This document shows, one piece after another, positions 16,021 through 42,941 of a DNA stretch of 64,000 nucleotides; positions within the stretch are counted from its first letter, which is position 1, and every line of letters starts with the position of its first letter. Made by a program: the position numbers and the translations under genes. Source of the DNA: Gonatopus flavifemur (lineage: Eukaryota > Arthropoda > Insecta > Hymenoptera > Dryinidae); the NCBI GenBank assembly GCA_018340375.1, contig JAFFJZ010000012.1, forward strand, positions 3,782,001 to 3,846,000, read 5' to 3'. The notes beneath the pieces were generated by a model. It was not told the origin of the DNA. It was given only the letters and a program-made list of their open reading frames with translations, and did not search any database.

Positions 16021-16741
16021 TTGAGTTTCCCAATGAAATATGACTCATTTCGATCAATCATCATTTCGAGCTTTAGGTAAGCTTTCACTCACTAAATAGT
16101 GAGTATCAATTGATAACGTAGTAAAATTCATCCAATTCTATCCAGTGGGATACTTATAACTGTAGAATCAATGAAATTCTACTGATTCAAATTTAGAAAG
16201 AAGAACAACATGGAAAAATACATTGTATAAAATAACCATTCAATTGAGCACCATGTGGGTTTTTGACTGGGTTTTTGAGGGTTTTTTCAATCCGTACCCA
16301 CCCGAAAAAACCCACTGGGTCCAATTGGGTTGGGCCCACAGATGCCAACCCTGCATCATGAGCACATAATCATATGATGAATTCGGTCTCATCCAGGAAC
16401 TCATTATCCTAATCTTCGAGCGGTGGAGGTGCTGGACATAGTGAATCTGGTGGAGGTTCCAAATTTCTTCTCGACTCCTATCAAGTACATAATTGAAGAG
16501 TTGAGCACATACAAAGGACATAAATATGTGATGAATTCGGTCCCATACACGTACACCCCATATAAGTATAAGAACACTGCGGATAAATTGAAAAATCTCC
16601 CATTCTCATTCCGCAGAGTGGGGGTGCTCGAACCGATCAACCCGGAGAATATTTACATTTCGCTCTCCAAATACATCAAGCAAATGTTTTCAGTGTGGAA
16701 CATACAAACAGAACATAATCATATGATGATTCAGGTTCGAT

Positions 16742-17161: not shown

Positions 17162-17228
17162 TCCTTTTTGTCCTGAACCATTCGGATTTCATAATGGCCA
17201 ATTCAAGCCTGTACACCTGTTTTTTATA

Positions 17229-18772: not shown

Positions 18773-19400
18773 ATAATCCACTCATCAATCTGGATTGTCC
18801 CAAATATGACTTTCCCATGATCCGGTTGTTCTCGCCGTCCTATTTCACACCTCAAACAGCCTTTTCATCTGTAACTTCTTCCCACCGATGCTTCTGATGA
18901 TAAAACCAATTGGAAATTGGAGCATATAAATAGCACATAATTCCGCCACTAATTTTGATCCGATAATAAATCATATAATACCGATTCCATATAGTGGGAG
19001 TGCTAGCTTCACATGTTGTCAGTACCTCCACACAAAATTCCTTTTTTTTATAGAAATTTGATGAGCACAAAATTAGCACCATTCACAAGGTGTAAATAAT
19101 CCACTCATGAATCTGGATTTTCCCAAATATGACTTTCCCATGATCCGGTTGTTCTCGTCTTCCTATCTCACACCTCAAAGAGCCTTTTCATCTGTAACTT
19201 CTTCTCACCGGTGATTTCGATGATAAAACCAATTGGAGATTGGAGCACATAAAAAGCACATAATTCCCTCATCAATTTTGATCCGATAATAAATCATTAG
19301 ATACCGTTTTCATATAGTGGGGGTGCTAGCTTCACATGTCGTCAGCACCCCCACACAAAATTCCTTCTTTTTGTAAAAATTTGGAGAGCACAAAAATCAG
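18755..19400. repeat. Tandem duplication of a 323-bp unit
   Basis: The block beginning ACCATTCACAAGGTGTA (18755) recurs at 19078 and continues in parallel: AATCCACTCAT, ATGACTTTCCCATGATCCGG, ACCAATTGG, TGATCCGATAATAAATCAT, AGTGGGNGTGCTAGCTTCAC. The unit is about twice the satellite period and ends in satellite-like GAGCACAAAATTAGCAC, so it looks like a diverged dimer that captured extra sequence. Related copies continue to about 19490. Confidence 0.8.
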
Positions 19401-20300: not shown

Positions 20301-20468
20301 GAAGTTTGAATCGTTTATTGAAACGAATTAGTGATGGAATAACGATATACCCCTAGTGAAAATGGGAGCGTAAGAAGGGTATGAAGCGACGCGGAGGAGT
20401 AAATGAAAAAGTATCTAAGCGCGAAAGAAGCGGAAACTGAAACATTTCACGCTTCATTTGTTTCACCA

Positions 20469-22995
20469 TGTTACGTCAAAACTATTAGCCTTTTAGTTCT
20501 TTATGTAACCTTCGATAGTTAAAGGAAGGCATTGGATCATCGAGTCCAATGTTCCCTTTAATACCCCACTTTAGCTAGGATAAAAACCCTAGACGAGGAC
20601 TGGGGAGAGGATATTGTTTGAAATAATATAAAGATCAATTTTTATACTGAAATGCAAGATGGTATATTCTAAAAAGAAAAACAATGATGTCTTGAAATTA
20701 CAAAGTTACTAAAATAAAATCTTAACTATCATAAGTTCATAAATTCAAATTCAAATTAAGTTAAAGATCTTTTCTGTTCAATATAAGAAAGAGAAATATT
20801 CACTTAATCTTTGAAGAACTTGGATCTTGTTTTAGATGAATTCAATAATTCATCGAATTTCGATTCACTTTAAACAAAACAAAAAAAATAGGGTTAGAAA
20901 AGATCAGAAGTGAAAGTATTCTAAAGAAATAGGAGAAATAACTCTGAGGGTTGCTCAGTAGATTAATTTCTCTTCAATGGAATGAAAATAGTTTAATTTC
21001 ATGCAATAGGTTTGAGATTTTCAAAAAAATACAAGTATGGAAATAAGGGATTTTGGGAAGGGAGATGATCACTCAGAACCCGAGAAATATTAAGATTTCA
21101 TAATCGATTTTTCATCAACGTAATCGATGGAAATTTAAGGTAGGGAGAGGAAAGGTAAGAGGAAAAATATCCTGAAAAATAAACGTTGTTATCGATTATT
21201 CTGAAAGAGAAAATTAAAAGGAATATAAAAGAATAGATTATAGTTAAAATACCTGTTTCTTAAATTCTGAATTTCAAAGAAAATATTTGAAAGAAACATT
21301 CCTAAATTAGAATTTTCTCTTTCCACATGTATGAAATTATGTTGCAGTCTTTCAAAATCAATCATTAAAGAAAAGAAATTAGGAAAAAAGTAATAGGAAG
21401 AAGGAAAAAGAAAAGATTTTTTTTACTTACTTTTGTAGAATAACAGGAAAGTTTTCGTTGCTCCACACAAGTCTTATTCAAACCTTTATTGAGTGAATGA
21501 ATATTAGAATCGTGTGTGGAGTTTAACACCTTTTCGAATTCTTTTAATTTCACACAATTTTCCTACTGTAAATTTGAAATATTAACTTTACTTCACTTTA
21601 ACTTTTAGAAACGGTAATTAGAATTTGAAATGTTAAAACTTTTCTGTAAGAGTATTGAATTGAGATTTTGAATTTGAACTTGTAAATTTTAGAAAACTGA
21701 TTGAACCTTTTTAAAAGAAAGCACGAACAAGAGTGAGTTATTCATGCATTTTCGCTCAATTCTCAGCTCGGTTTTTAGATGGTGAGGGAAAATTTCAATA
21801 GTAGGGAAATGTGGGTGGGAATAATAGAATTTCAGAAAGAAGAAAATGGAGTTCAGATAGGTTGAAGTAGCATGGAATCGTGCATTACCTGAGGGTAGGC
21901 TTGTCCTTGAAAAGGAAATTCTCCATTTTCTTTAATTGGGACAACCCACTTACCCTTTCTCTTGAGCATAATGCCTAACTTATGCTCTCTTTTAAAATGT
22001 ATATATTTCTCTTTCTTGATGTACTATTCTACAGAATTCTTATTTTAATTCAAAATCAATTATTAATTAGAAAATTGTTAGTTGTCAATGATTATTTAAA
22101 TTATTCACTACAAGAACATTTCAAAAAAAATGATAATTTTCTATTCTAATTATTGTAACAAGAATTTCAATATTTATATTCATTTTACTTACCTTCAACT
22201 TACCAATACTTACCATTTCAAGAACGTAAACTTTCATTATTTTAAATAATGCTCCATTCTGGTTTAAACTTAGAATTTTGCATTATAGAGATGCTAGATT
22301 GGGCCAGCATTGGCAGCCAATCTTGAATTTCTAAACCAATGGTTAAATTGGTGTTAGAATCTGAATTTTCATGTGTATTAACATGTTCAAGGCTGAATTT
22401 AACCAAGATCGACGAAGATCGGCAAACGATACTTCGCCAACCCTGGACCAACCTTGGCCCAACGAAGAGTATTGGGGCTTTTTATTATAAATAAAAAAAA
22501 GAAACAAATTGAATATTTGTCGTATTCTTTATAGTGAATTTACTTGAGAAATTTCCAGACAGAGTTGGCGACACAATTCTTCGCTCTAATCCTCTGCTGT
22601 CTACATTTCAATGAGGTTTTTATTACGGGGTAATTTGGAATTTGATTTTATTTGGAAAAGGATGTAATAAAAGAGGAAGAAAAGGGTCTCTGGTTTTCCA
22701 GATTTACTTGTCCCTTTTACATACGGCACAAACATAACGGGAACACAAGTTGTTCTCAACTTGTGTTTTAAAGGGAGACTTCTTTTTCTCTATAATTTGA
22801 GTGTAAAGAAATCTTCCTTTACCGTATGTGTAATTCTCCTGGGTCGAATTTATCGATAGGGCAACAGATATTCTGTTTTACCCTATTGATAATTCGTTCA
22901 TAGAAATTTAACAGAAGGGAAAGATTCGAAAAAAAAAAAACAAATAGAAAAGAGAAAGAGATAAAATTTGGAAGAAATTTTACGTTCTCGTTACA
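20469..22995 (-). repeat. 3' LTR (2,527 bp)
   Basis: Its left edge TGTTACGTCAAAACTATTAG follows ACCA; its right edge ...CGTTCTCGTTACA meets the polypurine tract. It is nearly identical to 40162-42683. Differences seen: one C in the CCC near 20582, A-run lengths near 20663, 21025, 21415, 22490 and 22930, and T versus C near 21588. An internal segment at about 22290-22470 is rich in TTGG/CCAA words. No coding frame in it is credible. Confidence 0.92.
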
Positions 22996-23011
22996 CCTCC
23001 CCCCTTTTTTT
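22996..23011 (-). other. Polypurine tract
   Basis: On the minus strand AAAAAAAGGGGGGAGG lies immediately upstream of the 3' LTR. This is the standard position and composition for the primer of plus-strand DNA synthesis, and it confirms the element's orientation. Confidence 0.92.
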
Positions 23012-23188
23012 GACAAAATCCCGTAGGGAATTTGACAAAAGATCAGAGATCGGCATTGGTAGCTGTGGTAAGTTGAATTTGACAAATTATTCTAATGATT
23101 AAATTGATAATAATAATAATCATAATAATAATAATAATAATTTAAAAAAAAATGTCAATATGATTATAATAGTAATAATGATGGAATT

Positions 23189-25158
23189 TTACACATTAAG
23201 TCCATAGGGGCGTTTTGGCATTTCAGACTCTGTTGGCAATTTGTTTGACGGGTAGAGTGGTTCGTGCTGTTTGTTGTCATCTGTTGGTGATTTTAGGTCC
23301 GGAGTAGGAGCTTCGTTCCGTTTCGTGAGCTTTCTCTGGTTGATGTGCAATAATAGATTGGTAGCAGAATCCCATAGCGAAACCACTAGATATGGTGACC
23401 AGCCATATACAGAATGTAATGCAAAAACATGTATTGCGGTATCAATTATCAACTTGATGATTTTGCAAGTGAGAATAATTCCCAATATTCCTGCACTGAA
23501 TGTTCCGAAAGTACTGAAACCGATCCAGAGCTTGTTCCAGGTTGAATTTGCAATATGCTCCAGGGTCTTCTCATCCAAAATCGAACTCCAGCTTATTCCA
23601 CGTAGTTCTGTAGGTTCTCCAGTAGCTGCGCGAATTATGTTATTCACAATCGATGGTTGGTCAAAAGGCGACATGATATATTTATTGAGCCTTTCAATAT
23701 CGTCTTCAGTGTAAATTCCTTGTTTGGCCAGATTTCCAGGGTTACGGTAGATCCAGGTTGGTGTGGTCAGGGGCTTCATGGTGTACGGTTCGGTAGTTTC
23801 TGATAAAAATGGTAGCAATTTATACCAGACTCCTTCAATTTCATACATTGGTGGAATCAGGTTATTACATGGAATTTCTGTCCCTTGGTTTTTCAAAATA
23901 TGTGTTTTAGGCATCATGAAGTAATTATTTTCGCCTTTCTTTACCGGTAGTTCCTGGTAACATCGTGTGGTCGAGGTAATTTTAACTTCCACTGGTACGC
24001 ATTTAATTAGTCGGATGACTTCGCCGGTGATGATTGCGGTATAACCAGGGCCTTTTTGGAAATTGAATGCAAATTCTTCTGGTCTCATTAAAGCCAGGGT
24101 TTGTGCATTTAGAAGAACTTCTCTTTCCAGTTTACATCTCTGCAGCATAACGTCCTTGTATAATCCGTTGATTTGGGTCCGGATGTACTGCTCGACGTAA
24201 ACGAATTTGCTGTTTACGTACGTAAATAGGTCCAGATTTTGAGTATTCATGGGTTTTGGTCGTGAGAAGAAACTCTCACGTCTTCCTTCCAAGATGAACA
24301 GCTTCGGATGTTGAGTCTTGATAATTTGGTATCCGCATAACGATTGTGATCGTTCAGCGGTCAGGGCAAAAGTGATGTCTTCGGTTTTTGCGGTGTATAT
24401 AGTTTCAGGGTAGTGTTGAGATAAATCCTGTAGTTTTGTAGAGTATCCTTCATAGAGTACTCCATATCGACTGAACTGGCAAATTTCATGGGGTATGGCG
24501 TCCCAGTACATGTATCCTCCGGTGATGTCCATACAATGTCCAATGCTTAAGGTGCATTGTGTTCCTGATTGAAGATATAACACGTTTTTCTCTACATCTG
24601 TTTTGGCATAGTATTCTATTAAGGTGACTTTAATTGATCCTTGGACGACGACACCATTCCAGTTTCCGTATGGATCACTGTATTGTGTTCCATCACAATC
24701 TCCATCAGATGTGATTTCTCCCGCTAAAGTTAACGTGAAAGTTGAGGTGGCGTTAACTTTAATTCCGTCGATGGTGTTTGATCCTATGGTTAAACGTCCT
24801 GTTTCGTGTAATCTTTGCAGTTGTCCCTGGTAGTCTCTTGAATGTATTCTGCAATCCCTTTGGTTACAGCTCCAGCATGTGAAAATAGTCCGCAATGGTG
24901 GATTTCTCGGAATATATCCACTTTGCATAGTTGCACGTGGGCAAAACCAAAGTCCATAAGTTGTAATAGTTGAATGTAAGTTGAGGTCTCATTAACTATT
25001 GGTTCCGGGATATTACAATCTCCTATTTTATTCAAGGAAATTGTCGTGATATTCGCATTGGGAGCTGCACAATCATATGCAATCAATCCGTCAGCAGATC
25101 CTGAGTATAGTCCGATGATGACGATGCTGAATTGCCACAGAACCGTCTGTAGTGCCAT
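23189..25158 (-). pseudogene. env: Envelope glycoprotein gene, chuvirus-glycoprotein-like, one frameshift
   Basis: Two overlapping minus-strand frames make one gene: 25158-24790 (122 codons) and 24928-23189 (579 codons). The first begins with a hydrophobic signal peptide (residues 1-24) and a Cys-containing NITTISL region, then a YIQLLQ and CKVDI...CGLFSHAG segment. By recall of family features this resembles the N-terminus of chuvirus (Mononegavirales) glycoproteins, not the usual baculovirus-F-like errantivirus env. The second frame continues with many Cys residues and ends with a transmembrane stretch (around LWIGFSTFGTFSAGILGIIL) and a Lys/Pro-rich cytoplasmic tail. The frame change lies near 24.79-24.83 kb. 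The product would sit in membranes and could mediate entry; as read, the gene is interrupted. Confidence 0.7.
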
Positions 25159-25483
25159 TTTTTTTTTTTCTGTTGGGGTGAGTTGGATTTAATTCAGAAT
25201 AAAAATATAATAAGGGTTGAATATAATACAGAATAAAAATATAATAACTAAAATAAGGCTCAAATATTGAGCTTAATTTTAACAACATTAATATTTGAAA
25301 AAGTTGATTATTCTGTTTTTTTTATAGTTTTAATCAAATTTTATCCTTTTTTTGTTTTTTTTCAATATATTTTTATATATACTCATTTACATGTAAGTAG
25401 TGAGGAAAAGAAATATCTGTATTTAGAATATATATATATATATATACCCATATATATATATATTCGTGTCGTGCAAAAGAAGT
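25159..25483. other. AT-rich spacer with TA microsatellite
   Basis: Between ORF X and the envelope gene. It contains TATATA runs at about 25427-25465 and no coding frame. If the envelope is made from a spliced RNA, an acceptor should lie here or just downstream of ORF X; I could not pick one with confidence. Confidence 0.5.
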
Positions 25484-27133
25484 TCACTGTGATTTTGGCA
25501 TTTTCATACCACAGTTTGAACAAAAGTTAACTGCCATCTGATTAGTTAATCTATACAAATCTATTCCACAGTGCGAACAAAAGATTTGCTGTGGGTTTGA
25601 ATTTATTAATGGGGAACACCTGATGGCATATTTATTACAATTTACTTTAAATGAATTATTGCACTTAGAATGTACAGGGAGTCGATTTGATATTTTTGTA
25701 AAGTTTTGAACTTTTGACACTTCTATTGTTACTTCATCTGAAGTTGTTTTATCTTTCTTGTAAGGGTTTGTGAATTTACATTTGGATGGCAACATCAATG
25801 GTTTCTCTGCTATGCTCTCATTTGCATCTATGAATCTTTTTGCAATTATATCTTTTGACCTTTCAATGGCAACTTGCAATGCGAATCTTCTAAACCGCCA
25901 TTCTAATGCATCTTTTTGATGTACACATATGTAACAAAAATCACGTGTATCAAAGTCATTGAGGAAAGCATGTCCTTGGATCTTGGTCCAGCTCTTATGA
26001 TTTGAGTCTTTACAACGCAGGGAATTGAATAATTGTTTATCTACTCCTACAATGGTATCGTCTTTCCAAATGATTTTGTCACAATAGATTGTTTTACCTT
26101 TGGGTGGCTCTACTGGTTGAAATCTTTCAAAAATACTAGGGATTTTAATTGGGGCAACGTATTTTTCCAAAAAACTACTATCATTATTAGGAGCGGTATA
26201 ACGGTAGTATATTGTTAAAATTTCAAGAATTTGGCATCTTCGATTCCATTCTATCTGATTTGATGATTTTATGCAGATTTCGCAAAAATCACGAGGGTTC
26301 AAATTACACACACGTGCCTTCATTTGTAATTGAGTTTGATTGTGAGTTTTTTCTTGACATTTTATTTTACTGAAATTAATATTGCCTATTCCTTTTATTC
26401 CATCTAATTCCCAATGTATTTGGTCGTTCAGTTCATTATCGAACATTCCCTTTTTGGCCAAAATTTTATAATATTCCAAGTCTTTAGAAAATGAATTTTG
26501 GTCGGATTCAAGATGAGCTTTGTTATCAATAAAAATGTTCGAACTCATCAAATCACTGCGAACGGTTGCTAAATACAAGGTGTCTTTTCGGAATTTCCAT
26601 TCCCTAATATCCTTTTTATAGACACACAAATGACAGAAATCTCCAAAATAAAGGTCATGTTGGTTGGCTTTTACTTGAATGGGAGTCAGATCAATATGTT
26701 GATGTGAGAGATCACAAGTGAGAGCAGAAAACAGTTTTTCATCCATACCTCTGATGTTACCATTATCCCAAATAAGTCGATTACAAACTCGTGTTTGTTT
26801 TTGAACAGAATATTCGTGAATCATGGCATTTCTATTGATAGCTAGAATCTTCTCTGGGGGTTCCCCAGTAAAAGTCGCATCATAGATATTAACATTTGAT
26901 TCTCCTTTTGCACAAATTGGGACTGAAACATCTTGATTTCTAGTGAATTTATAATGAATCTCATTAGAATCTACATTTATTTTATCGTATTTTAAGAAAA
27001 ATGACGGTGAAATTAATGGTTTTTCTTCTGTTTTTTCGAATTCCATATCTCCAGGGTCGCTGGATGATAGGGGGTCCTTGTAGTTGTTTGCAAAATATTC
27101 CATAGGGAAATCTCCGGTTTTTAGGTATTCCAT
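25484..27133 (-). CDS. ORF X: 549-aa accessory protein with three CHCC repeats and a C-terminal zinc ribbon
   Basis: Intact frame between pol and the envelope gene, unlike any standard retroelement protein I know. Three related blocks of about 70-80 residues (117-195, 238-306, 351-427) share a C-x3/4-H pair (C140/H144, C259/H264, C374/H379), a DFCxxC pair (C167/C170, C284/C287, C400/C403), and a following EW-x2-R motif; blocks 1 and 3 also share CxxxIWxxxxIxGxDxxLF. Residues 519-542 form a zinc ribbon (FCSHCG then FCSNCG). The N-terminal 110 residues are acidic and polar. There is no signal peptide or membrane segment, so it is probably intracellular and nucleic-acid or protein binding. Function is unknown; a packaging, regulatory or anti-silencing role is only speculation. 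Confidence 0.85.
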   Translation of the reverse strand: MEYLKTGDFPMEYFANNYKDPLSSSDPGDMEFEKTEEKPLISPSFFLKYDKINVDSNEIHYKFTRNQDVSVPICAKGESNVNIYDATFTGEPPEKILAINRNAMIHEYSVQKQTRVCNRLIWDNGNIRGMDEKLFSALTCDLSHQHIDLTPIQVKANQHDLYFGDFCHLCVYKKDIREWKFRKDTLYLATVRSDLMSSNIFIDNKAHLESDQNSFSKDLEYYKILAKKGMFDNELNDQIHWELDGIKGIGNINFSKIKCQEKTHNQTQLQMKARVCNLNPRDFCEICIKSSNQIEWNRRCQILEILTIYYRYTAPNNDSSFLEKYVAPIKIPSIFERFQPVEPPKGKTIYCDKIIWKDDTIVGVDKQLFNSLRCKDSNHKSWTKIQGHAFLNDFDTRDFCYICVHQKDALEWRFRRFALQVAIERSKDIIAKRFIDANESIAEKPLMLPSKCKFTNPYKKDKTTSDEVTIEVSKVQNFTKISNRLPVHSKCNNSFKVNCNKYAIRCSPLINSNPQQIFCSHCGIDLYRLTNQMAVNFCSNCGMKMPKSQ

Positions 27134-27779
27134 CTCTGGGTGTCAGAGTATGGGATTGGTACGCGTATAAAAAGTGCGTGATTTTACTGTGAGGAAAAAT
27201 AATAAAAGATTATTAATAAATGAATTTATGAAAATTATATAAATTTATACAAACTTTTGATTTTATGATAAAAGAAGGAAAAGAAAAAAAAAAATTTGTA
27301 ATTTTAGTTAATATACAATATATTAATTTTGACAGGAATTTTAAGAAAACTTATTTATGAATATTTAAAAAAATGAATTTACATTTATTTATAATTATAA
27401 AATTGTTATCCCAAATGAATGATAATAATAAAAACAAAGAGAAAAGAAAACCTATAGGGGTGATTATAGTGATATTATATGAAGATTATTTAAACAACTA
27501 ATAAGTAGTTATAAACTGAAATAGTCAGACATTGTTAATAACTTTAAAATTTACGTTAAGATAGATAAATGCGTTTATAGTCTGACATATAATTTGAGTT
27601 ATTTTGCACTATAATATGTTTTTTTTTTTTTTTTTTTTTAGAAATATTTTTAGAAAAAGAAAAAGGATAGAAATATGGAGGTTAAATTTTTTTATCTGAA
27701 AGGATAGAAATTATATATATACAATCATACACACATTCATACATTCATACATGTGTAAAGATTCAAATTGAATTAATAA
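27134..27779. other. AT-rich spacer between pol and ORF X
   Basis: About 650 bp with poly-A/T runs (for example T18 near 27620) and no coding frame. It could hold splice signals for ORF X and envelope messages. Confidence 0.5.
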
Positions 27780-30700: not shown

Positions 30701-32026
30701 CAACACAATATCCATCAGGTGTTGGAAGGTTGCAGGTGCATTTTTTAAACCAAACGGCATTCTTACAAATTCATAATGTCCATGAGGCGTGGAAAATGCA
30801 GTTTTATGTCGGTCCTTATCACTCATTTTGATCTGGTGAAATCCAGATGCAAGATCAAAGGTGCTGAAATATTTTGCATCTCCTAGTTGATCTAAAATTT
30901 CCGTTATATTAGGTAATGGATAAGCGTTATTAACAGTTTTTTCGTTTAACGCTCGAAAATCTAGGACAAGTCTCCATCGTTTGTTTCCATGACTGTCAGC
31001 CTTTTTTGGTACAATCCATACAGGAGTATTGTATGGGGAAGTTGATGGTTGAATTATGTCATTATTCAATAATTCGTCAACTTGTCTAATAATTTCATCC
31101 TTCAAATTTGGAGGAAATCTATATTGTTTTGTGTGAATTGGTTTATCGTCCGTTGTAGATATTTCGTGATCCAATACATCCGTGTGAGTCAATTTATCTC
31201 CAGGAATATGGAATCGATCTAAGCTGTGTTTAATTAGAATTTCAACTTCTTCTCTCTCTTCTTGATTTAGATGGTCTAACCTCAATAGTTGTTTCGTTTT
31301 TTCAAATCTTTCGTTTTCTTCCCTAGTAAAATTGATGGATTTCTGTGAAATTTTATATAAGTTTCGTTTCTTCCGATTCGTAGTTCGCCGTCGGATAGTT
31401 TGAGTAGTTTCATGGTTCATTTTCTCAATTTCTTCTAATTTGAGTATAGGAATAGATACTTGGACTTCTTCAGTGGTGGTGTTGATTATAGGCATGTATA
31501 TGTATCCATTATGATTTTTGACAACTGCATTACCCATATATACACCATTGGTTATAGTTGCACGGGGTATATAACCTTCCGATGAATTGGTCTCTTCAAT
31601 TTGGATTTTCACAATTTTTCTAATTCGTGGGGGAATTGTATAAACTCTAGTTTCTTGGATGAAAGGAATTTTCTTTGAATTATTCAATTCTAAACAGTTT
31701 TCTGCCCAGTTAATTTTGGCTTTCTGTTCTGACAAAAAGGTGATTCCGATAATTCCATCATGTTTAATGGGAAAATCGTCAGGCACTACATAAAATGTGG
31801 TTATGTGTCCGATAAAATTCATATCGAATTTTCCTAAAGTTGGCACCTTTTCCGGTGATATTCCTGTTAAATACAGTATCTCATCAGTATCAATTGCAGT
31901 CAAGTCTTCTATCACGTTTTGTTTGATTAGACAAACTCCAGCACCTGAATCTAATAGAAAGGTGACGATTCGAGGTCCGATTCTTACTTGAATTGCCGGA
32001 GAATGCAATTCCAAAGCTAATTTCAC
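27780..32026 (-). pseudogene. pol: Pol polyprotein (protease, RT, RNase H, integrase) with one frameshift
   Basis: Frame 1 (32026-28229) overlaps the end of gag in the -1 frame and is open further upstream, so it is probably made by -1 frameshifting; the annotated first codon is GTG. Approximate residues: protease LLDSGAG (26), RT YLDD (450), RNase H TTDASG (602) and TDHKPL (668), an acidic linker (about 730-960), integrase zinc region (1072-1113), integrase core D1142, D1204, E1240 (DD35E). It is closest in style to the 17.6/297 errantiviruses. Near 28,260 the frame shifts and the integrase C-terminus continues in 28226-27780 (NTSIHEGTKRTPYEL ... LYEGPYKI, the GPY motif). The second zinc-binding His is replaced (HDSTAGGPKG). 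One indel separates the two parts. Confidence 0.92.
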
Positions 32027-34077
32027 ATCAGTGGTTCGATTGTATCTTCCGCGTGGACCATTGCATGGTGTATGCTTTGATTCGATCGGATAGTATTTTG
32101 AGTTCTCACCATATTCTGATTTTGAGTATTTGCCTCCCTGCGAGGGAGGCTCTGGGAGTTTCCCGAGCTCCTCAAATTTTGAGCGTCTTTCCGGACTCTA
32201 CACTCTTCAATAGTGTGAGTATTATTTTTGCAAAATGTGCAGTAACTTCCATTACTTTGTCGAGATTTCAATTGATAACAGTTTTCCGCGGTGTGCCCGA
32301 TTTTTTTACAAAATTGGCATTGCACAGTCGGCCTCAGATTCCTTGTTGGAATTTCCGGACAGCGATCTGCTTCGTGTCCATTTCTTTTACACAATTGGCA
32401 ATTGACGGAGCTTCTACAATCTTTTGCAAAATGTCCGAATTTATTGCATTTTAAACAGGTTTTATTCAAAGGACAACTTTCAGTGATGTGATTTGTCGAA
32501 CTACATTTTTGACATCCTCTAGGTTGCATCATTTGGATGGGTACGTAATATCTACATTCATCGGCCCTATGTCCGATTTTTTTGCAAATTTGACAGGTGT
32601 CCGAACTTCTTTGAAACGAGTCTCTGCACTCGCGGATTGTATGTCCGTATTTTCGACAGTTGTTACATCTCACATTATTTTGACTTCTGCATGATGTTGC
32701 TGAATGTCCGAATTTTTTGCAAATTTGGCATTGAATTTGCTCATTATCTCTGATTTGTTTATATTTGTGGCATTGTGTGGCAGTATGCCCTTCCTTTTCA
32801 CAAATTTGACACTGGTCATTGTTTTTGAGCTTTTTCCCGCTTATAATCGGACAGTCACTTGATTGATGTCCAGGTTCTTTACAGAGAAGACATTTTTCTT
32901 CCTTAAGGGCCAATTTTCTCAATAATTTTTGAGCTTCAATCTCCTTTTCTTTCGTAATTGCCTCTGGTCCAGCATTATTTAGATCTTCTTTTTCTTCCAT
33001 TTGATTGAATATCTCTGGTTTCAAGCCTCGTACAAAAGCTTTACATACAGCAGTTTCAAGCTCTTGTTTTTTAGCATCTGTGATAACATTGGTATTCTCA
33101 TTTTTATAAGCTTCGATTATTTTAGAACCCAATCTTCTGGCTCTATTGAAATAAGTGGCCGCGTCTTCATGTGTTTGTTGACATAATGTGCCGAGCTTTC
33201 CGATAAGATCTATGCTAGATTCACGAGTAGCATAGATTCCTTTTAGAACATTTATTAATTGAGCAACTGTTTCAGAATTTGAGGTGCGAGCAATATGTAG
33301 TGCTCCATCTCGTAATTTTGATCTTATCATAGTAGTGAAATTCTTTTCCATTGCTGGGTCAATAAGTGTCCTAGCATCAGTGCAAGCTGCTGCAAATTCG
33401 CTGAAATTGGCTCCATCACGAGTTCCTGAAAATACAGGAATCATTGATATGGCATCTTGTATTTTCACATAGTTGTTCGCCATTTTTGTAGTTTTCCTAG
33501 TTTTCTTAGTAGATTGATTTCGTATTTTTCTGTGAAGCTTTTTCTTGCCCTTATTGGTACCAGGAATAGTAACTCTCGAGCTTATACTCAGATTACTAGT
33601 TGTCACGTTTCCCTTGAGTGGAGTACTAGTGATAACGGTATTTTCCAATGAATTTGACCAGTCGTCTTCCGTTTCTACGTCAGCGTCGTTTGATAAAACA
33701 TCAGTTGTAGTATCTTCCAAAGTACTAGTATTTTCCTCTTCTTCAGTATCCTCTTCTTCTGTCTCACTAGTTTCTTCTATTATTTTATCAATGGTACTAG
33801 TATTTTGCAAGTCGTTCTGATTTCTTTCACCTTTTCCTATAGGATCGAGTTGGGTATTTTCACCAACGTTTTTCTCTTCTTTTTCTGCTTCTACTTCTTT
33901 ATTATTCCTTTTCTTCTTAGGAGTTCGTGTTATCTTAGATTTTGAAGCGAATGGATCTTTTACGTTGTTGAAATCCTTTTCTTCTTGATATTCCTTCGAT
34001 GTCGACGGGTCTTGATCACGAGATTTTAACGTTTCCTCTAGTTTCTTCGTTTGACTACGAGTATTAACGCCTGACAT
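32023..34077 (-). CDS. gag: Gag with ten CCHC zinc knuckles
   Basis: An intact 684-codon frame from MSGVNTRSQTKKLEE to a TGA overlapping pol. The N-terminal 200 residues are charged and Ser/Thr-rich, residues about 200-390 are a helical capsid-like region (IPVFSGTRDGANFSEF ... AFVRGLKPEIF), and residues about 397-625 hold ten C-x2-C-x4-H-x4-C knuckles in a row: CLLCKEPGHQSSDC, CQICEKEGHTATQC, CQICKKFGHSATSC, CNNCRKYGHTIREC, CQICKKIGHRADEC, CQKCSSTNHITESC, CLKCNKFGHFAKDC, CQLCKRNGHEADRC, CQFCKKIGHTAENC and CTFCKNNTHTIEEC. Most Gag proteins have none to two. The protein forms the particle and binds element RNA; the expanded array suggests extended RNA contact. Confidence 0.93.
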   Translation of the reverse strand: MSGVNTRSQTKKLEETLKSRDQDPSTSKEYQEEKDFNNVKDPFASKSKITRTPKKKRNNKEVEAEKEEKNVGENTQLDPIGKGERNQNDLQNTSTIDKIIEETSETEEEDTEEEENTSTLEDTTTDVLSNDADVETEDDWSNSLENTVITSTPLKGNVTTSNLSISSRVTIPGTNKGKKKLHRKIRNQSTKKTRKTTKMANNYVKIQDAISMIPVFSGTRDGANFSEFAAACTDARTLIDPAMEKNFTTMIRSKLRDGALHIARTSNSETVAQLINVLKGIYATRESSIDLIGKLGTLCQQTHEDAATYFNRARRLGSKIIEAYKNENTNVITDAKKQELETAVCKAFVRGLKPEIFNQMEEKEDLNNAGPEAITKEKEIEAQKLLRKLALKEEKCLLCKEPGHQSSDCPIISGKKLKNNDQCQICEKEGHTATQCHKYKQIRDNEQIQCQICKKFGHSATSCRSQNNVRCNNCRKYGHTIRECRDSFQRSSDTCQICKKIGHRADECRYYVPIQMMQPRGCQKCSSTNHITESCPLNKTCLKCNKFGHFAKDCRSSVNCQLCKRNGHEADRCPEIPTRNLRPTVQCQFCKKIGHTAENCYQLKSRQSNGSYCTFCKNNTHTIEECRVRKDAQNLRSSGNSQSLPRREANTQNQNMVRTQNTIRSNQSIHHAMVHAEDTIEPLM

Positions 34078-35194
34078 TGACTTTCATTTGGTTATTATAA
34101 TTTATTTAATGTAGAATTTATTTATTGCATATTCATTCACAATATGTTGATATTGTAATATTTGACATATGTTTGAATTTATTCGATTCTCGATTTATGA
34201 GAAGATACGTGGCCAAATTACCGAATATAATTGTTCATTTAACAATTCATCAATTTATTTAACAACAATTTATTTGTTTGTTTGTTTTCAATATCATGTC
34301 AAACACATGAAGCGATCTTGTTCGTACGTTTGTCAGAAATTTGTGTTCTGAAGTGATAATTTATTTGTTCATAAAAATTATTTATTTAGAAAGAAAGAAA
34401 CTATTTGATATTTTTCGAAGCAAATCGATTGATTTGGTATCATCCAATCTCGTTGGCAATCGTTTCATTTGAATTTTAAAATTGAATTCATTTATAATTA
34501 TTTATTTATGAAAAATAATTTTCCTTAACAAATTTGTTATTGATTTTCCGTATATCCATTCAAATCAGCTTATTCCCGTTTACTGAGATTTTGAACAAAG
34601 AATCCACTTATAATTTGTTTATTTATGAAAATTATTTATAACAAATTGTTGAAACAAATTTTCGACATCTAATATCCAATGTAGTTTTCTTGGAGAATTC
34701 GCGGTTTTATCAGAAATTTTCAAATTATTTATTCATAAAAAAAAAGAATTTGTTTTGAAATTTGTTTATTTAACAAATTTTTAATCTGAGTCTGACCCAA
34801 TATGGTCCTTTTCTACTTGCAATAAAACAAAAATTTTGATTAAAGATAAATTTTATATAATTGTTTATAACAAATGAAATTTGTTTATTTAACAAGTTTT
34901 CATTGATTCTCAATATAGCTGATAATGAATAGTTCATTAATAAATTTTCATCTGTGCAAAATACTTGCAATTTCCTTCTTCATTTATCTAATTATTCAAA
35001 ATACATATACGTGTATAACTCACTCAACTAAAAATCATTCTCAATTTCCAGAACCTATTCAATAATCATTTATTAAATTGTGTTATTATTCTCATTATCA
35101 ATATACGAACGAAATACTTATCGATCTACACCTTGAAATACTCATCAGCAAATTCTCGTAATGCGATAAGCTTCGCGCTAGTAAGTTCCTAAAA

Positions 35195-35990
35195 GTTACT
35201 AGATTTTCTCAAAACACGTGGACGCGTAACACAATGTGAACGCACCACTCTTGAACACGTGTGTTCTCAAGTCGCGTGGACTGCTAGCAGACGAAAACAA
35301 AATAGCGGCGTCTATGTTTCGACCCGTGTGAACAAACCGGCATCGTTATCGCGCATCAAAATACTAATATTTAATATCACGAAGTCGTGAACGATAAAGT
35401 ATGTTAAAAGTGAGTGTAGTTTGATAAAGTGCAATGAATCTAGGATTGAAACACGGACCGTGTTTTCGTCACGAGTCAGATAAGTATTAGAACATTTGAA
35501 ACAATAATAAAAAGAATTATTGCTTTGTGTCAAAATTTTTAACTCTTTTTTCAGCAATTCAAAAAGTAAGAAGGATGTCGGAGTAATGTTTCTGGAGGAT
35601 CAAATATTCGCCTCAATATTGGACAAGTTCAACTGAAAATAATATACACAGTGAGTATTTTTATGCATGTAAAACTTTCAAGCAAACTTTTCAAAGTTGA
35701 ACTTTCTAAAAAAAAAATTGAAAGAAAGTTCATACGGTTCAACAAATCCAAGTTTTTATTCTACTAGTGATAAAAATGGAAAAAATCTATATAATCGGTA
35801 GTAGTTGTTCACGCAATATTCCAATTCAATGATATAGCGAGTATAAAAGAAAGTAGTTAATAGAGTCACATGAACTGTATGTACTCGCTTTTACTCAAAA
35901 ATGATTTATCGTTGGTTAAAGTATCATATTCATCTAATGTATCACATATTTATCGTCCACAGCAGTTAAAACCAGGGATAATCAGTGATC
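35195..35990 (+). repeat. Leader duplication, copy 1, with exon-like signals on the plus strand
   Basis: Pairs with 38960-39760 at constant offset (about 3,767): TTGAACACGTGTG/TTTGAACACACCC, GATATAGCGAGTATA in both, TTTATYGTCCACAGCA in both. It contains a plus-strand acceptor TTTTTTCAG (ending 35554), a 96-bp segment and donor CACA|GTGAGT (35651), then a second acceptor CGTCCACAG ending 35962. These signals are on the strand opposite to gag-pol. No long reading frame is present. Confidence 0.55.
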
Positions 35991-38959
35991 CAGAGGACGA
36001 TTGGTGAAGAGACGTCAAAGAAAAGGATCAATTATGATGAGAGACGACTGAAGCGCACCAGGAATATGGAGTTCTAGGTATCCAACAATCAATATGGAAA
36101 GGTTTTCAATCTACCCGTCCATACTCCAAGCTACATACTCTTATCGAGTGTGAACTTTCATCAAGATTACTCTCGGAGGAAGAATTTATTCCAAGTTCGC
36201 TCAAGAATGTCTACAATCTGTGTTCTCGGTAACGATACAGGTTTGAGGATGGTGAGAATAAAGAATGATTTATTTATTCTCGTCTTTTGAGAGGTATTCA
36301 ATTTTCTCAAAATGATTTCTTTTAGTTTAACTTCGTGAATGCTTATCTCTGTAAGTTTTTCAAAGGTATTCACGGTTTTGAGACAAATTTTACTCACAGA
36401 TTCTTCTTACAGGGTTCCGTCAAGCTCACGATAACTCTTTGGTACTTTGGAAGTATTATATCAAAGATTATCGGGTAACGGAGGAAGAATATAATCCAGA
36501 TGGACTTCGGAAAGGAGTAAATTCTTTATCTACTTCAGCGCACTTCCTGTTTTAAGTTCAGGAACACTGAAGTTTCTAGTCTACAAAGTGAAGAAGCGCA
36601 AGTTATTCCAGGAGGAATATTTTGTCGACGCTAGGAGCTTCAAGAGCAACAGCAAGAAGTGTGTGAAGTGTTGTTTTGAAAAAGTTCAGTGATTCGTGCT
36701 TCGAGTGAGATATAATTAGTGAAAGTGAAACGACAAATAATGTGAATCGTTAAGGAGTGAATTTCTTTTCGAACTTGTAGCATGACAGTTTTCTGTTGTT
36801 AGTACAAAAAGAAGGTTTAGTTATTTAATGATTTATTTCATTTGCTTTAGGTTAGAATATTCAATTATGAATTTAAACTATCTTGTTCATAGTTATCATT
36901 TCATTTTATTCAATTTATAGTGAATGGTTTATCAAACATCATTCAATCTTTCAAAGTTTGTCTCGATTAATCAATTCTTCTCATTTATATATCTATTAGA
37001 TTTTTGTAACTGTTCATGACAGATTATTATAACTTCTCAAGTTTCTTTTGTGACTGAATTTAAACATTACAGTCTTTCAATCTAATTTGATTGTTTTCAA
37101 TTTCTTTTCAATTATTCATTTATCGCTTCACAGGGTAATTCTTCTGTGTTGCTTATTTCTTTTGATTTCTTGACAGGATAAACGTCTGTCTTCTTTAGAT
37201 CTGTTGAATAGTTTTGATTTTATCTCAATGTTTTCCATTTGTCGCTTCAGTTTTTTAGTTCGCTTTGTAGCTGGTATAAAATTTCTACGATACTTTCAAT
37301 CAGTTTCATTGGTATTCGTTTAAAATCGTGTGCATTTTGCTTTCTGTTTCTCGTAAGTCATGAATGTGCATTAACCTTTCGTTGTGGTAGTTGTTGACAT
37401 TTATCATATTCTTGAAACACAGTTTTAGTTCAAGAATATGAAAGTTAACCTGTCGTTGCGGTTGTCATTAACATTGTACATACATGAGCTTAATTCTTTC
37501 CAGTATCGTGAGTTGACTTGTCGTTACAGTTGTCATTAACATTGCAATATTTGGAAAGAGCGAGAACAGAATTCTTTGCACTTTTATGATATAATCATTT
37601 AATTGAATTCATTTTTTGTTAGTTTTCATAGAATCTATTCATACGTATACACATATATTCAGTTATTCGCAACGATTCCTGACATTTATAGTCACTTTTT
37701 GCTACGTAACTTCAATTTCTATTCCATTGAATTTGGATATCGATGTAGAATTTATTTGAATTGTTTTAGAGTACACATTTAATAAAACTTTGATATTTAT
37801 TCTATTCATTCGTGGTTGAAATTCAGACACAGTTTATATCTAGTTAAAACTCGCATTTATCACAATCTTTTTAGACAGAAGTAGTTTAGAATCAGTCCAG
37901 GCATCTATGTATTTATGATATTATGAGCAGGCCCTTTTTTTTTGAACTCCACTTTATGATCTTTTATGGACGAAAAGGTCTGGACATACAATTATTGTCA
38001 GATTTTATCTTTGATGTTTGCATCGGTTGTCTGTAAATATTCCTTAATCCGGAAATTCTCATTTATCTGTTGTCTCAGGTTAGTTTTTTCTTTAGGTTAA
38101 ACCAGCAATACTTCATTTCAATATCACAAATTTCTGTTTTTCATGTACACAGAAGACATATTAGTTGATGATATTCTAACTCTGAATGGATACGCTAAGA
38201 GGCTCAACATATATATACATTTTTAAACGCTTGAATATTTAACAATATTTAAAGAAGAAAGAACGTTTATTTTTCTGGATAAGGATTCATAGAATGTTCA
38301 GTTTTCATGCATCGATTGGAATTCCTTGAAGTTTTAGGTACACAAGAATAGGAAAGTATTCAACGAATACTTGGATAGTCAGTTATCGTGCACCTATACG
38401 TGGGAAGAAATGGACTCGATGAATAGAATTTTCAAGAATCTTCACATCGTTATTGCATTGCAACTTAAATTTGTTCACGCTTTCATAATTTCTACTTAAA
38501 TCATGGGAATTCAAGCACTTTTCACTTGAAATATTCAATTTCCTATTATAATAAGGTAATTTTCTCTGTTTTTTTTCTTGTGGAAAGATATATTCCTACA
38601 TAGATTCAATTTTGCAGGCAAAAACAAACTCAAAATCTGTTCAGACCTTTATGGGTTTATGGGGTTTCAGGTCTATAAGGATAGGAGATGTTTTTATCAC
38701 GTGCAAGAGATTATCATGTTTTACCAAGGGTTTCTTGGTTAAGACAAGAATAATCATGGAAATGAGAAATACTTTCGGTTTCTCTTTTACAGGTATATAC
38801 GTATATTTTCAAGTTATGAAATATACACGTATTACAGGAAATATATATATATATAAATTTGTATGAAAGAATAAAATTTATACATATTATAGAAGAAAAT
38901 ATCATGTATATTTGAAATTTATGTTTCAGATTTCATTTCCTCTTCAAAAAGAGAAAAAC

Positions 38960-39760
38960 GCAGAAGTTCTTAGATTTCTTCTAGACGCGCGAACACACGT
39001 TGTGATAAAAACACACCACCTTTGAACACACCCGCTCTCAAAACACGCGGACTCCTATTATCGTTGTCACGTGTATAAACACACCGGTAAACATAACCGT
39101 GTAATCGCGTGTAATATAATCAAATATAAAATTCCGATGTTAATGAAGTGTATCGATTAATGAATAATTAACAAAAGTGCAACAATTATAAAGGTCTATG
39201 CAAAAGGATATTTTCGTTTGCCGTCACCATCAGATGAGTATACAAAAACTGTGAATTTATAAAAAGAAACTATTTCTTTGTTGAAGAATTTTTTTTTACT
39301 TCTTTTTCAGTGTATGAAAATGGAATAAAAATTACGATGAGCTTTGTCAAATGAAGGGAGAATGCTTCTTCTTATTAGTCAAAAGAAATCCTGATACGTA
39401 AGACCAAAAATGGTATTTGCGGTAAGTAAGTGTATGTATTTTCTTGAAACCGAAGATAGAAATTTTCAGAACATGAATTCTAGATCAATAACAGGTTGTA
39501 TACATTTCGTGGACACCATTAGATTCCTTTCTATTATGAAATAAAGGTCCGAAATCTGCTAATGCAAATAATTGTATCCGTAATATACAATTTAGCGATA
39601 TAGCGAGTATAGAAAGGTAATCAGTATGGTCAAAAGTGAATTGCATACACCTATAATTGGTCTGAAATTGAATATCGTTACTAAAATATTCATTAAAACT
39701 GAATATGGTATATGTTTATTGTCCACAGCATTCAAAGTCGGAGACTACATGCTTGGAAGA
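38960..39760 (+). repeat. Leader duplication, copy 2, with matching exon-like signals
   Basis: Here the plus-strand acceptor is TTCTTTTTCAG (ending 39310), followed by 111 bp and the donor GCG|GTAAGTAAG (39422), and a second acceptor ATTGTCCACAG ending 39728. All three positions correspond to those of copy 1 although the intervening sequence has diverged, which suggests selection or shared function. Confidence 0.55.
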
Positions 39761-40126
39761 AAGAAAAAATTCCATTTATCGTGCTGCGCTCTTCATATCT
39801 TGAACTCCAGGGACGCAAAAATTCTATTCTGAAGGATCGTGGCTGGAGTATCGACTTGAAGAGTTGTGTATTATGTGTTTCGGGTTTCATATATTGTGGA
39901 TTTATGGTGTGAAACGACTAAAGTGAGAAGACTGAGTCGTATAAAGAAGTGAATTAGTGTGTGTGTGTGTTCGCTAAAGAAATCTTTTCAATGTTATTCT
40001 TCGGAACAGCCAATGTGGTTGTACCAACTTTTATTCTTTTAATAAGTGATAAAAGTTTGAAAATAATGATATTTATTCAATATTTGAAAACAGAATTAGA
40101 AACATTTCAAACGATATCCTCGCGTG

Positions 40127-40143
40127 TCCTACCGACTGCGCCA
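40127..40143 (-). other. Primer binding site for tRNA-Ser
   Basis: On the minus strand TGGCGCAGTCGGTAGGA is complementary to CCA plus the 3' end of insect tRNA-Ser(AGA), which ends TCCTACCGACTGCG before CCA. The tRNA end is recalled, not searched. 17 bases match. It lies 18 nt inside the 5' LTR edge, further than the usual 0-few nt. Confidence 0.8.
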
Positions 40144-40161
40144 AAATTTTTAACTATCGTC

Positions 40162-42683
40162 TGTTACGTCAAAACTATTAGCCTTTTAGTTCTTTATGTA
40201 ACCTTCGATAGTTAAAGGAAGGCATTGGATCATCGAGTCCAATGTTCCCTTTAATACCCCACTTTAGCTAGGATAAAAACCTAGACGAGGACTGGGGAGA
40301 GGATATTGTTTGAAATAATATAAAGATCAATTTTTATACTGAAATGCAAGATGGTATATTCTAAAAGAAAAACAATGATGTCTTGAAATTACAAAGTTAC
40401 TAAAATAAAATCTTAACTATCATAAGTTCATAAATTCAAATTCAAATTAAGTTAAAGATCTTTTCTGTTCAATATAAGAAAGAGAAATATTCACTTAATC
40501 TTTGAAGAACTTGGATCTTGTTTTAGATGAATTCAATAATTCATCGAATTTCGATTCACTTTAAACAAAACAAAAAAAATAGGGTTAGAAAAGATCAGAA
40601 GTGAAAGTATTCTAAAGAAATAGGAGAAATAACTCTGAGGGTTGCTCAGTAGATTAATTTCTCTTCAATGGAATGAAAATAGTTTAATTTCATGCAATAG
40701 GTTTGAGATTTTCAAAAAAAAATACAAGTATGGAAATAAGGGATTTTGGGAAGGGAGATGATCACTCAGAACCCGAGAAATATTAAGATTTCATAATCGA
40801 TTTTTCATCAACGTAATCGATGGAAATTTAAGGTAGGGAGAGGAAAGGTAAGAGGAAAAATATCCTGAAAAATAAACGTTGTTATCGATTATTCTGAAAG
40901 AGAAAATTAAAAGGAATATAAAAGAATAGATTATAGTTAAAATACCTGTTTCTTAAATTCTGAATTTCAAAGAAAATATTTGAAAGAAACATTCCTAAAT
41001 TAGAATTTTCTCTTTCCACATGTATGAAATTATGTTGCAGTCTTTCAAAATCAATCATTAAAGAAAAGAAATTAGGAAAAAAGTAATAGGAAGAAGGAAA
41101 AAGAAAAGATTTTTTACTTACTTTTGTAGAATAACAGGAAAGTTTTCGTTGCTCCACACAAGTCTTATTCAAACCTTTATTGAGTGAATGAATATTAGAA
41201 TCGTGTGTGGAGTTTAACACCTTTTCGAATTCTTTTAATTTCACACAATTTTCCTACTGTAAATTTGAAATATTAACTTCACTTCACTTTAACTTTTAGA
41301 AACGGTAATTAGAATTTGAAATGTTAAAACTTTTCTGTAAGAGTATTGAATTGAGATTTTGAATTTGAACTTGTAAATTTTAGAAAACTGATTGAACCTT
41401 TTTAAAAGAAAGCACGAACAAGAGTGAGTTATTCATGCATTTTCGCTCAATTCTCAGCTCGGTTTTTAGATGGTGAGGGAAAATTTCAATAGTAGGGAAA
41501 TGTGGGTGGGAATAATAGAATTTCAGAAAGAAGAAAATGGAGTTCAGATAGGTTGAAGTAGCATGGAATCGTGCATTACCTGAGGGTAGGCTTGTCCTTG
41601 AAAAGGAAATTCTCCATTTTCTTTAATTGGGACAACCCACTTACCCTTTCTCTTGAGCATAATGCCTAACTTATGCTCTCTTTTAAAATGTATATATTTC
41701 TCTTTCTTGATGTACTATTCTACAGAATTCTTATTTTAATTCAAAATCAATTATTAATTAGAAAATTGTTAGTTGTCAATGATTATTTAAATTATTCACT
41801 ACAAGAACATTTCAAAAAAAATGATAATTTTCTATTCTAATTATTGTAACAAGAATTTCAATATTTATATTCATTTTACTTACCTTCAACTTACCAATAC
41901 TTACCATTTCAAGAACGTAAACTTTCATTATTTTAAATAATGCTCCATTCTGGTTTAAACTTAGAATTTTGCATTATAGAGATGCTAGATTGGGCCAGCA
42001 TTGGCAGCCAATCTTGAATTTCTAAACCAATGGTTAAATTGGTGTTAGAATCTGAATTTTCATGTGTATTAACATGTTCAAGGCTGAATTTAACCAAGAT
42101 CGACGAAGATCGGCAAACGATACTTCGCCAACCCTGGACCAACCTTGGCCCAACGAAGAGTATTGGGGCTTTTTATTATAAATAAAAAAAGAAACAAATT
42201 GAATATTTGTCGTATTCTTTATAGTGAATTTACTTGAGAAATTTCCAGACAGAGTTGGCGACACAATTCTTCGCTCTAATCCTCTGCTGTCTACATTTCA
42301 ATGAGGTTTTTATTACGGGGTAATTTGGAATTTGATTTTATTTGGAAAAGGATGTAATAAAAGAGGAAGAAAAGGGTCTCTGGTTTTCCAGATTTACTTG
42401 TCCCTTTTACATACGGCACAAACATAACGGGAACACAAGTTGTTCTCAACTTGTGTTTTAAAGGGAGACTTCTTTTTCTCTATAATTTGAGTGTAAAGAA
42501 ATCTTCCTTTACCGTATGTGTAATTCTCCTGGGTCGAATTTATCGATAGGGCAACAGATATTCTGTTTTACCCTATTGATAATTCGTTCATAGAAATTTA
42601 ACAGAAGGGAAAGATTCAAAAAAAAAAACAAATAGAAAAGAGAAAGAGATAAAATTTGGAAGAAATTTTACGTTCTCGTTACA
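40162..42683 (-). repeat. 5' LTR (2,522 bp)
   Basis: Nearly identical to the 3' LTR; it carries the promoter for the element. Right edge ...CTCGTTACA is followed by target duplication ACCA. Copies of the same short frames in both LTRs (for example 41933-42142) are a consequence of LTR identity, not evidence of coding. Confidence 0.92.
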
Positions 42684-42941
42684 ACCAGGGACTCAACAAC
42701 TGTTAAAGATCCAAAATTTTGCAGTAATTTTTTTAGGTAATGTTTTCAGTTCCAAAGAGTTCATTTGCAAAGTTGAATAAGATTCATTCATTAGATTTTG
42801 TAGGTTTGAATTTTTGTTTTGTTTCTATAAACCATTCAAACTTCAGCAATATCTTTTAGACAACGAGTGCTGTGTGGGTGTTCATCGGGATGCGGTTTTT
42901 CGGGGTTGGCTTTCTTGAAATGTCTTCGAATCGTACAAATG

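What the first reader, a model, noticed from the sequence alone, without database searches (positions are those of the whole stretch)
20469..42683. A 22.2-kb, very young Ty3/gypsy element with an unusual gene set
Seen: intact boundaries (ACCA duplications, PPT, PBS), near-identical 2.5-kb LTRs, a 6-kb leader, gag, pol, a 549-aa extra ORF and a non-standard envelope. Known: insect errantiviruses are typically 5-9 kb with gag, pol and a baculovirus-F-like env. The combination looks like a distinct retroelement lineage, possibly an endogenous retrovirus assembled from two virus groups.
Basis: partly seen in the sequence, partly recalled or inferred. Interest (0 to 1): 0.88.

Follow-up and report, generated by a model that had tools for sequence, protein, structure and literature searches.

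The report
Insect retrovirus with unknown extra gene
A very large, recently active virus-like jumping element in an insect genome carries an envelope gene of negative-strand RNA virus type and an extra fast-changing gene of unknown function, kept at the same place in many related copies.

Summary
20469-42683 (minus strand) is one LTR retroelement: 2.5-kb LTRs differing by 1 substitution in 2520 sites, ACCA duplication, PPT, PBS, 6-kb leader, gag, pol, ORF X, env. Pol is Ty3/gypsy. Env is not the errantivirus F type but a Monjiviricetes (chuvirus-like) fusion glycoprotein (PF24664, E 4.5e-191). In this copy the integrase end and env are frame-broken. The own genome holds a family: 40 scored LTR matches give 14 LTR pairs; 12 of 12 copies with both ends resolved have perfect, mutually different 4-bp duplications. 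X is in 13 of 13 other paired copies, so it is no chance insert. In 13 more distant loci (X 28-47% identical) X lies beside integrase, env or both. X is under purifying selection (omega about 0.35) but evolves faster than integrase or env in all but one comparison, and env appears exchanged between pol-X backbones. X has three zinc-type repeats, a terminal double zinc ribbon, and no relative found outside the element. A new variant of a known kind. X's function is inferred: nucleic-acid-binding regulator or counter-defence protein.

The parts
20465..20468 (.). target site duplication ACCA, left
20469..22995 (-). 3' LTR, 2527 nt
   Evidence: 1 substitution and 6 indel events against the other LTR
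22996..23004 (-). polypurine tract GGGGGGAGG abutting the 3' LTR
   Evidence: sequence
23189..25158 (-). env: Monjiviricetes-type (chuvirus-like) fusion glycoprotein. ATG at 25158; reading frame switches near 24815-24830; the rest is in ORF 23189-24928
   Evidence: PF24664 E 4.5e-191; 235 homologues; frame break; ATG
25484..27133 (-). ORF X, 549 aa: three repeats (residues 103-218, 233-338, 334-448) and a C-terminal double zinc ribbon-like tail
   Evidence: present in 13 of 13 other LTR-paired copies; family in own genome
27816..28253 (-). integrase C-terminal region, in another frame than the pol ORF
   Evidence: tblastn with P0125, P0126, P0130
28229..32026 (-). pol ORF: protease, RT, RNase H, linker, integrase zinc-binding and core; -1 frame relative to gag
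   Evidence: Pfam, PDB Ty3, overlap
32023..34077 (-). gag, 684 aa, ten CX2CX4HX4C zinc knuckles
34078..40161 (-). 6084-nt leader without long ORFs
   Evidence: 501-nt slice 100% identical in one other copy
40128..40143 (-). primer binding site TGGCGCAGTCGGTAGG, 18 nt from the LTR
   Evidence: same sequence inside the 5' LTR in all 13 rows printed (window included; C374 not printed); tRNA-Ser assignment is recalled, not tested
40162..42683 (-). 5' LTR, 2522 nt
42684..42687 (.). target site duplication ACCA, right

Best explanation
It is a recently inserted copy of a giant envelope-bearing Ty3/gypsy retroelement (an endogenous retrovirus in the functional sense) of an insect, probably a hymenopteran. 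Shown: the anatomy, gypsy-type Gag-Pol, a Monjiviricetes-type fusion envelope, and a conserved extra gene X between pol and env; a burst of near-identical insertions with 4-bp duplications; purifying selection on X; and an env that is much closer between some lineages than their X and integrase are. Inferred: Gag-Pol by -1 frameshift, env as a membrane glycoprotein giving cell-to-cell or germ-line infection, X and env from spliced mRNAs, and X as a zinc-dependent nucleic-acid-binding accessory protein. For X I put first (about 0.4) a regulator of the element's own RNA, such as export or stability of the long unspliced genome, by analogy with CERV of the nematode LTR element Cer1; second (about 0.3) an antagonist of host silencing, which its fast protein evolution would fit; the rest is open.
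For: Structure. Gypsy pol; RT nearest to P0125 (support 0.965). Env. Family: 31 LTR matches at 99-100% and 9 at 85-90% among 40 scored of 278 candidates, forming 14 pairs 18.2-21.7 kb apart; perfect and mutually different 4-bp duplications in 12 of 12 copies resolved. X in 13 of 13 other paired copies. In the 11 loci with X 42-47% identical, integrase is found upstream in 9 and env in 11, two of these weak or partial (L072, L080); L082 (X 33%, env about 70%) and L083 (X 28%, integrase 84%) extend this. Selection: X omega 0.34, 0.35, 0.37 at dS 0.20-0.25; integrase 0.08, 0.11, 0.22; env 0.18 in the one of these with env. Env exchange: env dS 0.20-0.24 against X dS 1.2-1.4 in L075, L077, L078. 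Zinc modules.
Against: In this copy pol and env are frame-broken. X omega was 0.37, 0.42 and 0.52 in three other comparisons (L058, L059, L067) and integrase omega 0.86 in L059 (frame-broken stretch), so decay after insertion blurs the estimates. dS above 1 is saturated; the env exchange rests on a large contrast. Of 29 other X loci, four (L058, L062, L063, L067) show no env and three (L067, L078, L081) no integrase in the slice; L067 (X 68%) shows neither. The leader slice of an older copy did not match. No RNA, protein or infection data; X function has no direct evidence. The repeat model has pLDDT 70 from 3 sequences and matched no fold.
Confidence: 0.86

Rival explanations
1. Chance nested composite: X, leader or env were inserted into one ordinary gypsy copy and do not belong to a replicating unit.
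For: Size (22.2 kb) is far above the 6.7-10.7 kb of the inferred pol+env contigs, and two of those 11 contigs leave only 500 and 690 nt beyond pol and env, no room for X.
Against: X in 13 of 13 other LTR-paired copies; LTR pairs 18.2-21.7 kb apart in all 14; X beside integrase and/or env in 13 of 13 distant loci; no second LTR-like pair inside.
Confidence: 0.03
2. X is a second, diverged structural protein (for example a Gag-like or attachment protein) and not a regulator.
For: Position before env; size similar to gag; cysteine-rich.
Against: No membrane-like stretch (best 19-residue hydropathy 0.58 against 2.1 in env); no significant match of the repeat profile to the fetched env and pol proteins or to other window frames; basic protein with zinc modules.
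Confidence: 0.2
3. X is a captured host gene kept as a passenger.
For: Modular zinc domains resemble cellular regulators in kind.
Against: All 13 diverged X loci examined lie next to pol and/or env of this element group; no cellular homologue in the searches made. L067 (X 68%) has neither gene in its slice, and the other matches were not examined for context.
Confidence: 0.15
4. The frame breaks are assembly errors and the copy is coding-intact. (Raised from 0.3 after rechecking.)
For: LTR differences are 6 indels to 1 substitution, at homopolymers. In X, four copies show 5-6 gaps with only 4-8 mismatches while five others show none with 8-11 mismatches, an uneven indel load that local assembly error could cause.
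Against: Neither break lies in a run of 5 or more A/T or 4 or more G/C in the stretches scanned; stop codons also occur in copies whose X aligns without gaps (L012, L014, L015).
Confidence: 0.4

Closest known systems
Errantiviruses (gypsy, ZAM, 17.6, 297 of Drosophila)
   Same: Ty3/gypsy pol, LTRs, a third gene coding an envelope; NCBI names several pol hits after transposon 17.6 or 297
   Different: Envelope is not the baculovirus F type described for insect ERVs (PMC12992720, passages) but PF24664; extra gene X; ten zinc knuckles; 22 kb
Anakin (BEL-Pao with chuvirus glycoprotein, mosquitoes; PMC7642597, passages)
   Same: LTR element with a chuvirus-type glycoprotein as env
   Different: Backbone there is BEL-Pao; here Ty3/gypsy; no X mentioned in the passages seen
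Jingchuvirales glycoprotein EVEs of Hymenoptera (PMC10084718, parts 1-3 of 5 read; PMC6540820, passages)
   Same: Same glycoprotein type, abundant in ants and other Hymenoptera, near gypsy fragments
   Different: Those authors report two glycoproteins within complete transposon boundaries (Anakin, and an unclassified element of Bemisia tabaci) and no clear evidence of capture by Gypsy; here the glycoprotein sits inside intact LTR-bounded gypsy units
Cer1 with CERV (C. elegans; PMC10309623, passages)
   Same: LTR element with an extra 517-aa protein that has a cysteine-rich, possibly zinc-binding region and no obvious homologues outside nematodes; CERV is needed for export of genomic RNA
   Different: CERV comes from spliced exons partly in gag frame; X is one ORF between pol and env; sequence relation not tested
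Bdelloid rotifer LTR elements with ORF3 (PMC5408684, abstract)
   Same: Extra ORFs acquired by LTR elements
   Different: Those are esterase, exonuclease or paramyxovirus-type env

Membership tests
Ty3/gypsy (Metaviridae) | PR-RT-RH-IN order, closest solved polymerase is Ty3 | tested here: met
Ty3/gypsy (Metaviridae) | LTRs TG...CA, PBS, PPT, short fixed target duplication | tested here: met
   4 bp in 12 of 12 resolved copies; two older copies unresolved
Errantivirus | baculovirus F-type envelope | tested here: not met
   only PF24664 at E <= 0.1
Errantivirus | RT clusters with gypsy/17.6/ZAM | not testable with these tools
   no reference sequences held; names on hits only
Monjiviricetes / chuvirus-type fusion glycoprotein | match over the family profile | tested here: met
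   profile positions 112-636 of 653, E 4.5e-191; the missing N-terminus lies upstream in another frame
Anakin (BEL-Pao) | BEL-Pao polymerase | tested here: not met
   nearest solved polymerase is Ty3; hits named 17.6 or 297
Retroviral accessory regulator (CERV/Rev-like function) | nuclear protein needed for export of unspliced RNA | not testable with these tools
   analogy only
Zinc-ribbon protein (X tail) | Pfam zinc ribbon above the curated cut-off | tested here: inconclusive
   23.3 bits against cut-off 27; 3 of 7 family members match double zinc ribbon weakly

The most novel reading that the evidence does not exclude
X defines a new class of retroviral accessory protein: a triplicated zinc module unique to one giant gypsy-chuvirus hybrid lineage, diversifying quickly under conflict with the host, while envelopes are exchanged between pol-X backbones within one insect genome.
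Probability: 0.4. Interest if true: 0.85.

Novelty: new variant of a known kind. Interest (0 to 1): 0.74.

Why it matters
It supplies LTR-bounded gypsy units, at least 12 of them young pairs, of a family with a chuvirus-type envelope, which a dedicated survey of these glycoproteins did not clearly find (PMC10084718), and it offers a replicating source for the many Hymenoptera glycoprotein 'fossils'. It also shows an animal retroelement lineage with a stable, fast-evolving accessory gene, of the kind known mainly from complex vertebrate retroviruses (recalled). One genome holds X proteins from 100% down to about 30% identity, so the history of an accessory gene and of envelope exchange can be read directly, and the role of X can be tested.

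Tried and rejected
Chance composite: rejected. X homologue search in 5.8 billion proteins: 3266 candidates, none at E <= 0.001. Solved structures: nothing significant for X. X folded whole: mean pLDDT 31.7, unusable. Repeat model: no PDB match and no viral match better than E 3.2. Viral contigs: no relatives of X, env, the env alignment, the pol alignment or gag. X relative of L071 against phage records: none. Rfam: three weak miRNA matches below their cut-offs. I suspected from memory a macro-like domain in the pol linker; Pfam showed none and the linker is shared by other Hymenoptera pols, so it was dropped. Host: inferred only. Among the 120 env and 120 pol hits listed (of 235 and 2681), 27 carry an organism name (14 env, 13 pol); I know these genera as Hymenoptera (recalled). 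Leader in an older copy: no match in one 501-nt slice placed by estimate, undecided. One search gave False for the duplication in 8 copies because the end motif hit inside the LTR; six of these and C374 (no end found) were resolved with longer slices, two older ones were not. Literature: nine answered searches, of which I saw titles and abstract starts of capped listings, showed no report of a complete gypsy element with chuvirus-type env plus an extra ORF; the metazoan errantivirus survey of Chary and Hayashi 2025 was seen only as a citation and may hold relatives.
Full report
Observation. The interval 20469-42683 is bounded by ACCA on both sides and by two LTRs of 2527 and 2522 nt that differ by one substitution in 2520 aligned sites plus six indel events at homopolymers. 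The element reads on the minus strand: 5' LTR, PBS 18 nt further in, a 6084-nt leader, gag, pol in the -1 frame relative to gag, ORF X, env, PPT, 3' LTR. Besides the LTRs, no repeat longer than 40 nt was listed inside (20 largest of 28 direct families and 11 inverted pairs).

Genes. Gag has ten CX2CX4HX4C knuckles; of 120 listed pol relatives two carry knuckles, P0128 two and P0241 one, but most of these are ORFs without a gag part. Pol has protease, RT, RNase H and integrase domains and its best solved relative is Ty3. The env ORF matches the Monjiviricetes fusion glycoprotein over profile positions 112-636 of 653. Its N-terminus starts at 25158 in another frame, and the integrase C-terminus also lies in another frame. 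In other copies the integrase end is read in a single stop-free match in 13 of 20 loci that cover it, so that break is not a family trait.

Relatives elsewhere. Env has 235 homologues at E <= 0.001, best 59% identical; pol has 2681 among 7969 scored candidates, best 60% over 99% of its length. Of the 120 listed for each, 27 bear an organism name (14 env, 13 pol), all genera that I know as Hymenoptera; the host is therefore probably a hymenopteran, by inference. I read these as pol and env on one contig; the contigs and their hosts were not seen. Env and RT distances correlate over the 11 pairs (Mantel r 0.85, p 0.0053; with the window r 0.90). Two of the 11 contigs leave 500 and 690 nt beyond pol and env, so a full X cannot be there.

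Own genome. G000 has 636 Mb in 402 contigs. An LTR query of 500 nt gave 40 scored matches of 278 candidates: 31 at 99-100% and 9 at 85-90%. Fourteen same-strand pairs 18.2-21.7 kb apart, the window's included, look like full-length copies: 12 young, 2 older. In 12 of 12 copies where both ends were resolved the 4-bp duplication is perfect and differs between copies (five, seven); the two older copies were not resolved. LTR pairs of young copies differ by 0 to 0.7%: 1/2520, 7/2526, 5/2577, 2/2513, 3/2518 over the whole LTR, and 4/1025, 1/1021, 2/1021, 7/1022, 1/1022, 0/1024 over about the first kilobase; C374 was not measured. The two older copies differ by 36/1008 and 15/461. This is a recent burst on top of older insertions.

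ORF X. X is found in 13 of 13 other paired copies (12, the last). Its DNA is 98.7-99.5% identical in 11 young copies and 94.4% in one older copy; X is uninterrupted over its full length in 3 of 13. A protein search of the own genome gave 96 matched stretches, with 79 of 185 candidates scored, from 100% down to about 30% identity, many with open frames of 500-700 codons. Around 29 other X loci (L053-L081), env is found in the slice in 25 (not in L058, L062, L063, L067) and integrase in 26 (not in L067, L078, L081). In the 11 of these with X at 42-47% identity, integrase lies upstream in 9 and env matches in 11, of which L072 shows only the env N-terminus at the slice edge and L080 only a weak C-terminal piece; L073 and L074 are near identical and may be one locus. 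L082 (X 33%) has env but no integrase in the slice, L083 (X 28%) has integrase but no env. The order pol-X-env is thus old within this group.

Selection and exchange. Nei-Gojobori counts against the window at unsaturated distance (L062, L063, L065) give X omega 0.34, 0.35, 0.37; integrase 0.08, 0.11, 0.22; env 0.18 (L065 only). Others: X 0.37 (L058), 0.42 (L059), 0.52 (L067); integrase 0.21 (L058) and 0.86 (L059, frame-broken stretch); env 0.20 (L059). X is constrained but changes faster than the others in all but that one comparison. In L075, L077 and L078 env dS is 0.20-0.24 while X dS is 1.2-1.4 and integrase dS 1.2 and 2.1 (41 and 45 codons; not measured in L078); saturation makes the large values rough, but the contrast suggests env exchange between backbones.

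What X may be. Three repeats share 18 invariant positions, among them W, C, H and C-x2-C, and self-alignment scores 169 against a maximum of 56 in 200 shuffles. Repeats agree most at codon position 2 and least at position 3, and the X frame has the best codon score of six. Across seven X proteins many repeat cysteines and histidines are kept, and the tail resembles a double zinc ribbon below Pfam cut-offs. X is slightly basic (pI 8.5) without a membrane stretch. No homologue, structure or fold was found outside the element. I infer a nucleic-acid-binding accessory protein. CERV of Cer1, 517 aa with a cysteine cluster and needed for export of genomic RNA, is the nearest functional analogue (PMC10309623, passages); no relation is claimed.

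Comparison. Insect ERVs of the errantivirus kind have F-type envelopes (PMC12992720, passages). Anakin pairs a chuvirus glycoprotein with BEL-Pao (PMC7642597, passages). The survey of Jingchuvirales glycoproteins saw gypsy fragments near them in Hymenoptera, complete elements only in Anakin and an unclassified Bemisia element, and no clear Gypsy capture (PMC10084718, parts 1-3 of 5). The present family is a clear case by anatomy, and adds X and giant size. The nine answered literature searches showed no such report in their listings; Chary and Hayashi 2025 was not available and could contain env-bearing relatives.

Limits. Some copies show an uneven indel load in X, so part of the frame breaks may be assembly errors.

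Noticed in passing
48080-56269 (-): A 2729-aa ORF rich in Glu, Thr, Ser and Pro with von Willebrand factor C-type segments (below the Pfam cut-off) and tandem 54-bp and 45-bp repeats: probably a mucin-like extracellular host protein.
   Followed up: partly
12088-13547 and 16355-16536: Array of about 154-bp tandem units with a separate copy 3 kb away.
   Followed up: no
17222-18776: Nested inverted repeats of 505 and 394 nt, 87% and 80% complementary.
   Followed up: no
62357-62543 and 63473-63659: 187-nt inverted repeat pair, 92% complementary, 929 nt apart: may be a DNA transposon end pair.
   Followed up: no
2337-3188 (+): ORF with an endonuclease domain of the kind found in non-LTR retrotransposons.
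   Followed up: no
8624-9364 (+): ORF with a SCAND3-like zinc finger, perhaps from a transposase.
   Followed up: no
L077, 3039 down to 484: A copy in which X is followed directly by the env C-terminal part in the same frame (open frame 952 codons); the env N-terminal part is missing.
   Followed up: no
20469-42683 family, own genome: Seven further 99-100% LTR matches without a partner among the 40 scored: solo LTRs or partners not scored.
   Followed up: no
L082, first 480 nt; L083, about 95-1336 (+): By eye, a DNA-transposase-like ORF where integrase would be expected (L082) and a non-LTR reverse-transcriptase-like ORF where env would be expected (L083); not tested.
   Followed up: no
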